A DNA stretch of 64,000 nucleotides from Chelydra serpentina (lineage: Eukaryota > Chordata > Testudines > Chelydridae), in the NCBI GenBank assembly GCA_037349315.1, contig JBAIAC010000007.1, forward strand, positions 48,757,001-48,821,000, read 5' to 3'. Made by a program: the position numbers and the translations under genes. Below, piece after piece: positions 13,080 to 18,536 of this stretch. The notes below the pieces were generated by a model. The model was not told the DNA's origin and ran no database searches. It saw only the letters and a list, made by a program, of their open reading frames with translations. Numbering within the stretch: position 1 is the first letter of the stretch; each line of letters begins with the position of its first letter.

Positions 13080-14595
13080 TGTCTGTTACAGCTGTCCCCC
13101 TGCTGGATTCTTTTTCAATAGTGGCCGCCCCCCCCCCCCCCCGGGCCATGGAACTGACCAAAGTCAGCCTGGCCCTGCTCATGAAAATGGCTTGAACAGA
13201 CTAACTGGGGCCATTGCTCTGCCTAGGGAGGAGGCTTCTTGCTCCTTTGTCTAGCTTCTTTGTTCAGACCCGGGCTCGGTGTAGGGGTGCTCTGCCCAGG
13301 TATGCAAGACCTAAAGTGGCCACATAGCTGAGCATATGAGTCATACCTGTGGCTCAGAACTTGCCCAGGCATGTCTATGCTTACCTGTAGTTTTCCCTGC
13401 CTTCTCTCCTCCCCTGTATCCAAAGAAGCCAATCAAAAGTACTGGTGGGAAACTGCCTAAGTTTGCCTTTAAAACCAGACATTTTCTGATCAGACCCTTG
13501 GAGAAGTTCTTTGCCATGCCACCTGGTCTGATCAGCTAGGGGTCTTGGGAGGCCCTCTCCCCGCTCTCGTTTGTTTTTTGAGCGTACCCCCATTTTAAAC
13601 TCCCCTCCCACGAACAACGAATTTGTGCCTGAAGATCTCCTGATTATTGTAAGCGAATCGAGTTTTCTCTGCTTGTTGCTGTCCTGGAAAGTGGTAAGGA
13701 AAAACCTCTTGCACACTTCCCCTTGTTTTAATGCTGGCTTTCTTTCCCCAGCAGGCAGACTCCTTGGTCTGTATTAGGTTCAGCTTTTAGTCTAGATAAA
13801 TTGTAATTTCATTTTGCATAGCTGTGGTTAAATTTGCTTTAAAGAATTGTTTGTATTGTGTTCTGTGTTACTTGCTAACTTGTGTAGTCTTGGTTAAGTT
13901 AAATCATAGATAAGATTTTACTGTGTTCTGTATAATTGTGTATAGGTCTGTCTTCCCACTGTCCAAACCCCCCAAGCTCGCCCGTGTCTCCCCCCCGAGC
14001 TCCCCAGTCTCATTGCAGTCTCTCTGCTGTTTAAACTTGCAGCCTGTCTGCTCTCTGTCTCTCCCTCAGTTCAAATCTCCCTCTGGTCTCTGCTCCACCA
14101 CGTGCCTCCCCCCCCCACCTCATTTCTCTACCACTGCCTTTCCAAGCCTCAATTGCATTACTAAAGTCTAGCATAAAAACCCCATTGGTTACTTTCCTTT
14201 TTCTCTCTAACACACCTCACATTTTACATTTACACCACTGTGACCCATTTTTACCTACAGTTGTTGGTTATTTAACACATTTTACCCATAACTGTTAGTT
14301 GGTTATATGCTGCTGTGACACACCCTTTACATAGAAATTGTTAGCTACCTGTTACATTTATACTTCAGTGTTAATTGGCTACCTACTGTATTGTACCCCG
14401 CTGTACTGTACCCCACTATTGAAACCCCCTATCCTGTTTACTAAAAGAAACCCCTCCCCAATTGTCTACCTTAACAAACCCCATACCCCTCACTATTGAA
14501 TTTTCCCTGTTTTTATATTCTCTTAATAAAGTTTATTTTGCACCCCACCTGTGCAGTAATTGTCCCCCAAGATCCCCTACCTGTTGGCAGGGACA
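13080..14595 (+). repeat. ERV 5' LTR
   Basis: The LTR opens TGTCTGTTACAGCTGTCCCC and closes GTTGGCAGGGACA. A C-homopolymer of 15 lies near 13128-13142. AATAAA is at 14525-14530, about 65 bp before the LTR end, leaving a short U5. Possible core promoter sequences include CATAAAAACC near 14171, but I cannot fix the transcription start. Open frames inside it repeat exactly in the 3' LTR, offset by 5418 bp. Confidence 0.95.
14525..14530 (+). promoter_or_regulatory. LTR polyadenylation signal AATAAA
   Basis: AATAAAGTTTATTTTG lies 65 bp before the LTR end and has an identical counterpart at 19943-19948. It would mark the R/U5 boundary region. Only the 3' copy would normally be used to end transcripts. 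Confidence 0.7.
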
Positions 14596-17500: not shown

Positions 17501-18536
17501 TTATAGACCTAAGCACTTTAGCCCGGGTAAAACCTGGCAGATGGACCTCATTGGCCCCCTCCCGGGGGCAAAACGGTATCCAAAGGGGCTTGTAATAGTT
17601 GACCTAGGGTCTCGTCAGTTAATGTGTTCTTCCCTCAGGCGATCTACTGCACCAGCTGTTTCTGTAGCCCTTCTCCAGGTAATTGCTGCCTGGGGGGCAC
17701 CCGAAGAAATCCAAACTGATGGAGGGCCACCGTTCACCAGCAAAGCTATAGACCAGACTGTGTCCCAGTGCGGGGGGCATCTCCAAACCCACCTGCCATA
17801 CCACCCCCAAAGTAGCGGGGTTGTGGAGGTCATAGGGGGCTATGTACGGTTTAACCCCCTCTCCTACAGTTTAACTTTACAGCAAATCCGTGGACTGTCG
17901 CTTGGTCTGGAGGCCCTCGCCAACATCACAGCAGAAGGGCTTCGTCGAACCAGCGACGCTCTCACGATCCTGGCCAACTACGCCGAGCAGAACCGTCTTC
18001 TGATCCAGGCCATCCTACAAAAGGACTTTTGTGTTGCCTTGAAGGACCTTGATCCTCGCTTTAAGGGACAATGTTGCCTACGTCTTCAGCCCAGGTGGAA
18101 CAGCATCTCAGCTGTGGCTAACCAACTGTCCTCCTTCGCCGTTCAGATTCGTAAGGAGTGTGAGCAGTGGGATTGGTGGCAAACCCAGTGGTCCAGCTGG
18201 GGGCTGGGATCCTGGGCCCAGTCCATCAAGCAGTGGCTTATTACTGTGGCTATTATTCTTGTAGCCTTTCTGTTGGGGATAGCAGTAGTCACGCAGTTGA
18301 TTCAAAGGGTTGTGTCTGCCCTGCCCTTGCAGGCGAGGTACTCCTCCATTCCCCTTGACAGCAGCAAACCATCACCCCTACATTACTTAGATAGTGAGAA
18401 TCTGTACTTAGATAGTAAGGATCTGAAACCCCTCTGGCCTTGGTCTTTGCACGGGGCAACCCCCTCACAGCCCATGGGGTCGGCCAGGGGGGCATGTCTG
18501 TTACAGCTGTCCCCCTGCTGGATTCTTTTTCAATAG
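14595..18536 (+). CDS. Fused ERV polyprotein: Gag-PR-RNaseH-IN-Env TM
   Basis: One open frame of 1313 codons from the first ATG, which overlaps the LTR end and primer site. The frame is open further upstream, so the natural Gag start is unknown. Order by residue: Gag-like region with a proline-rich segment and a PPPY late motif at 225-228; protease with LLDTGAQ, DTG at 586-588; an RNase H-like domain with acidic residues 773, 807/809 and 832; integrase with an H..H/C..C zinc finger (H914 to C954) and D984, D1042, E1078, spaced exactly DD35E; then directly an Env transmembrane subunit with a C-x13-CC motif (1146, 1160-1161), a membrane span at about 1214-1237 and a cytoplasmic tail. The RT polymerase domain, the integrase C-terminus and Env SU are missing. 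The stop lies 42 bp inside the 3' LTR. Each deletion keeps the frame. Expression is not shown; a defective but selected or trans-mobilised element is possible. Confidence 0.85.
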   Translation: MASRTGSWGNNCCLPCPWKEAKTSGTDEDQTNHLQYHSLQSKQQPEAQEWVCMIGKGQSSRVYTTHLGLTDVGCLLTCHPTFRASPADSSLRLTCTKAGEPAADSDPTRLWREVGRVTKACGGTPSRLTPEPRILQGSPAHQILTDLVQKLEGVRKPKKLWPDVYKPQKVATVAYEILAQALDKLTIFHGALMASAKEAVSQPSQKGPPPPTASQPSPNNTPEHPPPYVHPEAPLPLEKPPLYPALPSAPPNAQAHTPPPTVTSSEALPISISRIKVDGQGNATQVTEFRLRSKAEMKEFISDTARGANEPPLLWLGRLALEHGQELVNREEGIVLARTSSWSRGLTGSMVISNTAWPLTAPALAFLHLQHSLQGIQVPKGSVKDLSSLRCAIAGGSIMLWSPAQHPLGLTQAQINQVNAFWHVIDPTEIPINEDAIDLAMDNSTTPDTGTVLWLRGYAGRPIGQLYEALERVRWPSAQALPISSHPPHTSPQPRSRHPEHSFVERKIFGFLLYKGLTKEVVRKLSSEQQRALAIALGWEERLEPSQPKKRITAGCLAAASTRPGDSRPYYPLVFDKGLVTPFLLDTGAQVSIIPPHIPHTPTGHTIYVQGLNSTEPGPEVKVHAYINHTPVTFQALVGPTPLLRVKELRRFNLAEAVLEALPVTLSGTSAPHEPELLNPTPWKYRPIPTAPAFLHLQHSLQGIQVPKGSVKDLSSLRCAIAGGSIMPWSPAQHPLELTQAQINQVNASSTTAPTEPGAIAQLSAYASWIVSDGGTSPSPRAGMLCAPCNTLKVKPLDFSSSAQKAEAEGVLLAASHIVAAHPKTRVVLGVDSSYCVSILVGEGRPTTPEEAWAQITQLAAQSKMPWFVTHCPSHRSNRNPLHSSLNLQLQEYKHDTSQVNIISCSNPFVTWLHDEWGHLPARALHQLLTDRGTRTSSVSRQQCTQAIQGCLSCQWAQVTNKPVYAHGAYRPKHFSPGKTWQMDLIGPLPGAKRYPKGLVIVDLGSRQLMCSSLRRSTAPAVSVALLQVIAAWGAPEEIQTDGGPPFTSKAIDQTVSQCGGHLQTHLPYHPQSSGVVEVIGGYVRFNPLSYSLTLQQIRGLSLGLEALANITAEGLRRTSDALTILANYAEQNRLLIQAILQKDFCVALKDLDPRFKGQCCLRLQPRWNSISAVANQLSSFAVQIRKECEQWDWWQTQWSSWGLGSWAQSIKQWLITVAIILVAFLLGIAVVTQLIQRVVSALPLQARYSSIPLDSSKPSPLHYLDSENLYLDSKDLKPLWPWSLHGATPSQPMGSARGACLLQLSPCWILFQ
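14596..14613 (+). promoter_or_regulatory. Probable retroviral primer binding site
   Basis: The 18 bases immediately after the LTR read TGGCGTCACGAACAGGAT. A leading TGG complements the CCA end of a tRNA and the position is right for a primer site. I cannot assign the tRNA with confidence: the first bases resemble Asn-type sites and the GAACAGG part resembles Lys-type sites. Confidence 0.6.
15671..15855 (+). repeat. ERV internal duplication, copy 1 (in Gag region)
   Basis: This 185-bp block recurs at 16661-16839 with a 6-bp deletion and about three substitutions, in the same reading frame (offset 990 bp). It encodes the HSLQGIQVPKGSVKDLSS segment. Copy 1 continues into further Gag-like sequence (WHVIDPTEIP), so it is probably the source. 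Confidence 0.9.
16661..16839 (+). repeat. ERV internal duplication, copy 2 (replaces RT)
   Basis: This second copy lies between the protease and RNase H segments, where the reverse transcriptase domain would be. The junctions are at AACTGCCCCA on the left and AATGCCT on the right. The position suggests template switching during reverse transcription that removed RT and copied a Gag piece in frame. Confidence 0.88.
18484..18494 (+). promoter_or_regulatory. Candidate polypurine tract before the 3' LTR
   Basis: AGGGGGGCA abuts the TG of the 3' LTR. It is short for a polypurine tract but correctly placed for plus-strand priming. Confidence 0.5.

What the first reader, a model, noticed from the sequence alone, without database searches (positions are those of the whole stretch)
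14595..18536. Provirus with one continuous Gag-PR-RNaseH-IN-TM frame and no reverse transcriptase
Seen: a single 1313-codon frame contains a PPPY motif, DTG protease motif, RNase H acidic residues, an integrase with exact DD35E spacing, and an Env TM segment with C-x13-CC and a membrane span. Missing: the RT polymerase domain, the integrase C-terminus and Env SU. Both large deletions preserve the frame. Known: retroviral gag, pol and env normally use separate frames, stop readthrough or splicing. Inference: this is a defective lineage copied in trans, or a fused protein under selection; chance maintenance is harder to explain if several copies share it.
Basis: partly seen in the sequence, partly recalled or inferred. 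Interest (0 to 1): 0.9.

Follow-up and report, generated by a model that had tools for sequence, protein, structure and literature searches.

The report
Turtle retrovirus family lacking reverse transcriptase
In what is very probably the snapping turtle genome, a stripped-down retrovirus that no longer encodes reverse transcriptase has recently copied itself to many places, apparently using enzymes borrowed from other elements, and some copies keep the remaining gene pieces joined in one long reading frame.

Summary
The open frame is real: 1313 codons from a start codon at the LTR/primer-site border to a stop inside the 3' LTR. The anatomy is richer than reported. RT is not simply deleted: a second gag piece of 182 nt sits in its place. 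Gag and protease are joined because the A-run of an apparent old frameshift signal has a particular length. In the same genome 40 gag matches were scored (of 57 candidates): 19 share this structure, 11 are a shorter relative (gag joined straight to RNase H), 4 run on from protease (RT reached in 2), 6 are other. All 11 loci with complete LTR pairs, window included, have different 5-bp target duplications, and LTR pairs show 0-1 mismatches, so the family is young and was probably copied in trans. Six of 15 units read keep all 1313 codons. Protein-level selection on the joined form is not detectable (pN/pS 0.86, 0.56-1.39), though indels are scarcer in the frame than in the LTR. An RT-bearing copy shares the integrase-TM joint, so losses came stepwise. 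It works like mouse IAP 1-delta-1. ERV4 membership is likely, not proven. No complete helper was seen; searches for one did not complete.

The parts
13075..13079 (.). target-site duplication GTTAC, left
   Evidence: flanks; repeated at 20014-20018
13080..14595 (+). 5' LTR (TG...CA), 1516 bp; its last A is also the A of the Gag ATG
14596..14613 (+). primer binding site, lying inside the Gag coding sequence (MASRTG)
   Evidence: sequence; MASRTG start also in Pelodiscus P0005, whose DNA was not seen; which tRNA was not determined
14595..18536 (+). single open frame, 1313 codons, Gag to TM, stop inside the 3' LTR
14595..16237 (+). gag, with a PPPY motif (Tyr codon at 15276); no zinc finger seen
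   Evidence: 48% identity over 97% to P0005; Pfam none; PPPY Tyr same in 21 of 21 covered units
15671..15858 (+). gag segment, copy 1 of the internal repeat
16010..16015 (+). splice-donor-like GGTAAG inside gag; position fits the gag-to-env joint of gene model P0008
   Evidence: inference
16238..16244 (+). A-run of an apparent former -1 frameshift site; run length joins the Gag and PR frames here
   Evidence: function inferred
16253..16284 (+). GC-rich stem-loop (11-bp outer stem) downstream of the slippery site
   Evidence: no differences in 11 of 15 units (window included) with this stretch, 1 difference in each of 4
16299..16657 (+). protease, DTG at 16350-16358
   Evidence: (weak)
16661..16842 (+). 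gag segment, copy 2, in place of RT; carries derived states
16846..17170 (+). RNase H; acidic residues kept in all covered copies
17171..17828 (+). integrase cut directly after the catalytic Glu (17826-17828)
17829..18494 (+). Env TM lacking SU, cleavage site and the first residues of TM
   Evidence: 87.5% identity to P0010 of Gopherus from its residue 301
18495..20013 (+). 3' LTR
20014..20018 (.). target-site duplication GTTAC, right

Best explanation
This is one copy of a young, multi-copy, non-autonomous subfamily of an endogenous retrovirus in a turtle, almost certainly Chelydra serpentina. The RNA keeps LTRs, primer site and presumably its packaging signal, and is packaged, reverse transcribed and integrated by enzymes from other elements. 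The losses came in steps: first integrase was fused to TM (also present in an RT-bearing copy); then gag was joined to RNase H (short class B); then recombination put a gag-protease front onto such an element, leaving gag twice (class A); then a length change in the slippery A-run hard-wired the old frameshift, and that form spread. Shown: shared joints, independent recent insertions, absence of RT. Inferred: order of steps, supply in trans, template switching as the joining mechanism. The joined frame is most simply a founder trait, not a protein under clear selection.
For: Of 40 scored gag matches (57 candidates) 19 are class A, 11 class B, 4 run on from PR without the gag repeat, 6 are other. 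In class A loci that cover them, the PR::gag, gag::RH and IN::TM joints match the window over 34-36/36, 35-37/37 and 39/39 bases; class B shares gag::RH (36-37/37, 11 of 11) and IN::TM (38-39/39, 5 of 5 read there). No RT in the window or in 20 of 20 long loci. LTR pairs: 12 complete pairs, 0 mismatches in 9 and 1 in 3 (gap columns 0-5, but 17 in L018). The ten single-unit loci with complete pairs, and the outer ends of the C4 triple array, have 5-bp duplications, 11 different ones (flanks, read one base later than the script's setting). An RT-bearing copy in the same genome (L036, L047, L048 on C200) shares the IN::TM joint. Copy-2 states form a series: CTG in 7 class B loci, CTA in 1, CCA in 2, TCA in 1; class A copy 2 is CCA in 2 of 19 units and TCA in 17, while copy 1 is CTG in all 19.
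Against: No complete helper with full integrase and Env was seen in this genome; the genome searches meant to find one did not complete. The RT-bearing copy read is itself lacking: its RT-RNase H-IN piece is open over 666 codons, but the adjoining protease-RT piece L036 is not open throughout in one frame and its integrase has an altered active-site residue (P0002). Gag and RH-IN-TM trees disagree, so recombination blurs the order of steps. L031 has the joined slip site but keeps the six bases that the other joined units read have lost in copy 2, which breaks a strictly linear series. Class B could also arise from class A by recombination between the two gag repeats, and L018 may have done so.
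Confidence: 0.85

Rival explanations
1. The fused Gag-PR-RNase H-IN-TM protein helps its own RNA in cis, as reported for the mouse IAP 1-delta-1 Gag-Pol fusion, and the open frame is kept for that.
For: Six of 15 class A units read, in five loci, keep all 1313 codons. Eight joined copies show 1 gap event against 102 variable columns in the frame, versus 19 against 84 in the LTR; outside low-complexity stretches 0 versus 5 (Fisher p 0.02). gag across 15 copies has pN/pS 0.55 (0.34-0.91). PR and RNase H active sites are kept in the covered units, except Thr of DTG in L013.
Against: For the eight joined copies pN/pS is 0.86 (0.56-1.39), codon positions are flat, nonsense changes are 2 against 3.1 expected. 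Integrase active-site aspartate 1 is Asn in 11 of 18 covered units. The low gag ratio may be inherited from autonomous ancestors.
Confidence: 0.2
2. Class A came first by one double template switch, and class B copies are later, repeated losses of the repeat by recombination between its two copies.
For: All four class B states are possible single-crossover products of copy 1 and copy 2; L015 and L018 group inside class A in the RH-IN-TM tree.
Against: L025, L026 and L028 group together outside class A in the RH-IN-TM tree (support 0.96, midpoint rooting), and the class A loci L021 and L037 with an unjoined slip site also carry the intermediate CCA state.
Confidence: 0.25
3. The copies spread as duplicated genome segments, not by reverse transcription.
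For: The C4 triple array is tandem, and an RT-bearing unit on C200 is followed by a further LTR and gag.
Against: Eleven different target-site duplications at the loci with complete LTR pairs.
Confidence: 0.03
4. A single chance deletion product with no family.
For: None.
Confidence: 0.01

Closest known systems
Mouse IAP 1-delta-1 (intracisternal A particle)
   Same: Shared large internal deletion giving one fused frame, non-autonomous, needs Gag and Pol in trans, source of most new IAP insertions (PMC6466679, passages seen).
   Different: IAP fuses gag to pol by one deletion; here the fusion runs on into Env TM, RT is replaced by a second gag piece, and a frameshift site is hard-wired. The cis effect reported for IAP is untested here.
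HERV-K(HML-2) type 1 proviruses
   Same: Deletion at the pol-env border carried by many young proviruses; the authors favour recombination and rescue by type 2 genomes (PMC3228705, passages seen).
   Different: 292 bp only; that RT and full integrase remain is recalled.
ERV4 class of crocodilians and turtles
   Same: 5-bp target duplication, no gag zinc finger seen, no dUTPase seen, env present in relatives; reported from Pelodiscus and Chrysemys, where autonomous kin of this family may already be named (PMC4299795, passages seen).
   Different: RT phylogeny with named ERV4 sequences was not possible; the integrase C-terminus that would carry GPF/Y is deleted.
Spumavirus (PFV) integrase and related RT
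   Same: Best solved-structure match for IN is PFV integrase, 2.5e-11; the top RT matches are labelled peptidase A9/RT and Pr125Pol (that these are spumaviral is recalled).
   Different: Env relative P0010 matches PF00429, the TLV_coat family.

Membership tests
ERV4 | 5-bp target-site duplication | tested here: met
   10 of 10 single-unit loci with complete LTR pairs, plus the array's outer flanks (flanks printed)
ERV4 | no zinc finger in gag | tested here: met
   Pfam none in gag pieces or P0005; no CCHC by eye
ERV4 | no dUTPase | tested here: met
   Pfam none in window pieces or in P0002; the PR-RT border of an RT-bearing copy was not scanned
ERV4 | no GPF/Y motif after integrase | not testable with these tools
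   that part of integrase is deleted in the window, in the copies read across the joint and in P0002
ERV4 | RT phylogenetic position with ERV4 | not tested
   no named ERV4 RT sequence was at hand
Non-autonomous ERV subfamily mobilised in trans | several independent insertions sharing internal deletions | tested here: met
Non-autonomous ERV subfamily mobilised in trans | no RT encoded | tested here: met
   tblastn with the RT part of P0002 finds nothing in the window or in 20 of 20 long loci; in the four further class A pieces gag copy 2 and the start of RNase H lie in its place
Non-autonomous ERV subfamily mobilised in trans | autonomous helper in the same host | tested here: inconclusive
   an RT-bearing copy exists, but it too lacks the IN C-terminus and SU; searches for SU unanswered
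IAP 1-delta-1-like cis-acting fusion | fusion protein promotes transposition of its own RNA | not testable with these tools
   only sequence tests were possible; they give no protein-level selection in joined copies

The most novel reading that the evidence does not exclude
The frame is selected for being open, not for its residues: uninterrupted translation from Gag through TM protects the RNA (for example from nonsense-mediated decay) or keeps it in the pool that helper particles package, so that in-frame joints and a hard-wired frameshift were favoured step by step. That would fit few indels with near-neutral amino-acid change.
Probability: 0.2. Interest if true: 0.75.

Novelty: new variant of a known kind. 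Interest (0 to 1): 0.55.

Why it matters
It gives a young, apparently stepwise record of how a retrovirus becomes a parasite of other retroviruses: integrase tail and surface protein lost first, then RT, then the frameshift hard-wired, with intermediates still in one genome. It offers a natural non-mammalian test of whether fused frames in such parasites matter. It also shows a Gag start codon formed at the LTR-primer-site border, with the same first residues in a distant turtle.

Tried and rejected
The AlphaFold model of Gag with one relative was useless (mean pLDDT 33), so no fold search was made. PDB search of a gag piece gave only weak, unrelated matches and of the TM piece none. Viral-contig scans with IN and Gag found no relatives. 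The IN::TM joint as a splice product was considered: in relatives the Env residue before the joint is Met (P0010), so no acceptor AG lies directly at it, and deletion fits better (inference; no Env DNA was seen). A homopolymer assembly error as the cause of the joined frame was considered and rejected: 14 of 19 class A matches read Gag and PR in one frame at this site. Single-copy chance deletion was rejected. Literature: the listings (titles and abstract starts) showed no paper plainly on this family; passages of PMC10435555 and PMC8420019 did not mention it; searches failed; one search listed nothing useful. The original IAP fusion paper is not held. That defective RNAs of other viruses keep a frame, and HERV-H deleted forms, are recalled only.
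Full report
Observation. The + strand frame from 14496 to 18536 is open in the sequence as given. It lies in a provirus with LTRs 13080-14595 and 18495-20013. The LTRs align with no mismatch and one 3-base gap in a C-run and are flanked by GTTAC on both sides. Gag starts at 14595, where the last A of the LTR and the first bases of the primer site form the ATG. The same MASRTG start is in a Gag-like protein of Pelodiscus sinensis, P0005. Integrase is supported by Pfam (rve 5e-13) and by PFV integrase as best solved-structure match. 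Protease has only weak Pfam support but has a DTG motif. Gag and TM pieces match nothing in Pfam.

What replaced RT. An internal direct repeat shows that gag 15671-15858 recurs at 16661-16842, just where RT should be. Leaving out the joint-side difference, the copies differ by three substitutions and a 6-base gap. The LTR pair has 0 of 1515, so the repeat is older than this insertion or came from another template (Fisher p 0.001). A related Chelydra serpentina protein, P0002 (UniRef A0A8C3S5W4), has RT, RNase H and integrase, and then the very same integrase-TM joint and LTR-encoded end (95% identity over 568 residues). Among the 16 proteins held then, the IN::TM joint is only in the window's own and P0002. 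The Gopherus Env P0010 shows what is lost on the Env side: SU, the RKRR site and the first part of TM.

Frameshift site. At 16238 an A-run is followed by C, seven bases and an 11-bp GC stem (-35.6 kcal/mol, z -3.7, 1 of 200 shuffles as good). The next frame reads KNG and a stop, close to the Gag end of P0005 (QPKNGERPSA). I infer a former -1 frameshift signal between gag and protease. In the window the run length puts both in one frame.

Other copies. The one answered genome search, with 1001 bases of gag, found 57 candidates and scored 40, at 97-100% identity. I fetched 20 long loci, holding 22 of these matches, and 1121-base pieces for 17 others; with the window itself that is all 40. Result: 19 matches (17 loci, one of them a triple array on C4) have the window's structure (class A). 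Eleven have gag joined directly to RNase H (class B). Four run from gag into protease without the gag repeat; RT sequence is reached in two of these pieces. Six are other (two units of L020, L024, L041, L042, L045). The PR::gag joint matches the window at 34-36 of 36 bases and gag::RH at 35-37 of 37 in the class A loci; gag::RH at 36-37 of 37 in all 11 class B loci. The IN::TM joint is 39/39 in 10 of 13 class A long loci (L012, L019 and L027 are cut before it) and 38-39/39 in 5 of 5 class B long loci. It is also in the RT-bearing copy on C200, where IN end and TM start are 13 bases apart as in the window (read from adjacent pieces). tblastn with the RT part of P0002 finds nothing in the window or in the 20 long loci; among the 41 fetched loci it hits only L032, L036, L046 and L047. 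P0002 matches the C200 copy at 99.6% (RT to IN) and 100% (TM), so the host is almost surely Chelydra serpentina; the published draft (PMC7718744, passages) has 13,224 scaffolds, so this 806-contig assembly is another one.

Age and independence. Twelve complete LTR pairs could be aligned (11 of 20 long loci plus the window): 0 mismatches in nine and 1 in three over about 1516 bases, gap columns 0-5 except 17 in L018. Two of the twelve belong to the C4 array. Nine long loci lack a complete pair and are undated. The script's test for target duplications printed False throughout because the LTR end was set one base short. Read one base later, the printed flanks give a 5-bp duplication at all ten single-unit loci and at the outer ends of the C4 array, eleven different ones. 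With assumed rates of 0.5-1 per site per billion years, zero differences means under about 2 or 1 million years (the rates are recalled, not measured here).

Order of steps (inference). Three sites distinguish gag copy 1 (CTG) from copy 2 (TCA in the window). Class B: CTG in L025, L028, L030, L034, L038, L043, L044; CTA in L015; CCA in L026, L029; TCA in L018. Class A copy 2: CCA in L021 and L037, TCA in the other 17 units; copy 1 is CTG in all 19. L021 and L037 also have the unjoined slip site and keep the six bases lost in most copy-2 segments; so does L011, unjoined with TCA. L012 and L019 are unjoined but have lost them, and L031 is joined but keeps them, so recombination has mixed these marks. 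In the RH-IN-TM tree L025, L026 and L028 lie outside class A (0.96), but L015 and L018 lie inside, and the gag tree differs. I read this as: RT-bearing element with IN::TM, then class B, then class A by recombination, then the joined frame. The opposite order for B and A is kept as a rival.

Open frames. Of 15 class A units read from the Gag ATG, 1313 codons are open in six: the window, L013, L016 unit 1, L017, L022 and L023 (five loci, L016 and L017 being one array). L009 and L010 have 1277, L014 934; unit 2 of the array is open to the end of the piece fetched. L011, L012 and L021 stop at the old Gag end (551), L019 at 160, L027 at 260. Of five class B long loci, L015 and L026 are open for 985 codons to the LTR stop; L018 (802) and L028 (933) stop early, and L025 misses the LTR stop and runs on to codon 1029. 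Fourteen of 19 class A matches read Gag and PR in one frame at the slip site, five do not; this does not mean that the rest of the frame is open in all fourteen (L027 is broken in gag, and the 1121-base pieces were not tested).

Selection. Using 10 class A and 5 class B copies (dropped: L012, L019, L027 as cut; array units 2 and 3 as near-duplicates; L020, L024 as other; the 17 short pieces), pN/pS is 0.69 (0.48-1.00) for class A, 0.86 (0.56-1.39) for eight joined copies, 0.56 (0.40-0.86) for class B; by segment 0.55 (0.34-0.91) for gag, 0.70 (0.31-2.39) for PR, 0.34 (0.06-1.48) for gag copy 2, 0.61 (0.24-1.90) for RNase H, 0.46 (0.24-0.92) for IN and 0.96 (0.54-1.93) for TM. Variable columns in the joined copies fall 38/32/32 on codon positions 1/2/3. 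Nonsense changes are 2 against 3.1 expected, P 0.40. So protein selection on the joined form is not detectable. Indels differ: joined copies have 1 gap event and 102 variable columns in the frame against 19 and 84 in the LTR; after leaving out low-complexity places 0 against 5, p 0.02. For all ten class A copies the figures outside homopolymers are 3 and 152 against 10 and 91, p 0.007. The LTR is more repetitive, so this is suggestive only. PR and RNase H acids are kept (one T-to-M in PR of L013), whereas integrase aspartate 1 is Asn in 11 of 18 covered units and aspartate 2 is Asn in L025, L026, L028 and P0002.

Source of RT. The RT-bearing C200 copy has a 666-codon open RT-RNase H-IN piece (L047), but its adjoining protease-RT piece (L036) is not open throughout in one frame, and its integrase is also cut and altered. 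It may be a kin of the helper, not the helper.

Comparison. The nearest mechanism is mouse IAP 1-delta-1, a non-autonomous deletion form with a Gag-Pol fusion reported to act in cis (PMC6466679, passages). HML-2 type 1 is a parallel for a recurrent pol-env deletion (PMC3228705, passages). The family features fit ERV4, the crocodilian-turtle class (PMC4299795, passages), on the three testable criteria; RT phylogeny was not tested, so membership is likely, not shown. The listings showed no paper plainly on this family; the library lacks most subscription journals.

Limits. The helper is unknown. Only one genome search was answered, and it scored 40 of 57 candidates chosen by gag, so copies without gag are unseen. 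Expression is unknown.

Noticed in passing
L016-L017 (G000 C4:63537121-63556500): Three class A units in a head-to-tail array sharing LTRs, with one target duplication (GTGCA) at the outer ends, as expected from recombination between LTRs or a concatemer.
   Followed up: partly
L036, L047-L049 (G000 C200) and L032, L046 (C699): RT-bearing sequence on two small contigs that each hold several gag matches; the C200 unit has a diverged LTR (93.4%) and is followed by another LTR and gag, with about 120 bases between LTR match and gag.
   Followed up: partly
P0007, P0008, P0013: Gene models of turtles called KIF22-like, OR52K2-like and OR10C1-like contain pieces of this ERV family's gag and/or env.
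   Followed up: no
L020: Two tandem units of truncated gag plus rearranged LTR pieces, 1998 bases apart.
   Followed up: no
window 9063-11096: Long open frame that looks like a CR1-type LINE reverse transcriptase (name recalled).
   Followed up: no
window 44075-44350 and 45681-45956: Direct repeat pair, 99.6% identical, 1606 bases apart; possibly a short LTR element.
   Followed up: no
window 28219-32385: Frames resembling a Harbinger-type transposase and its partner (recalled), with tandem repeats at 30721-31130.
   Followed up: no
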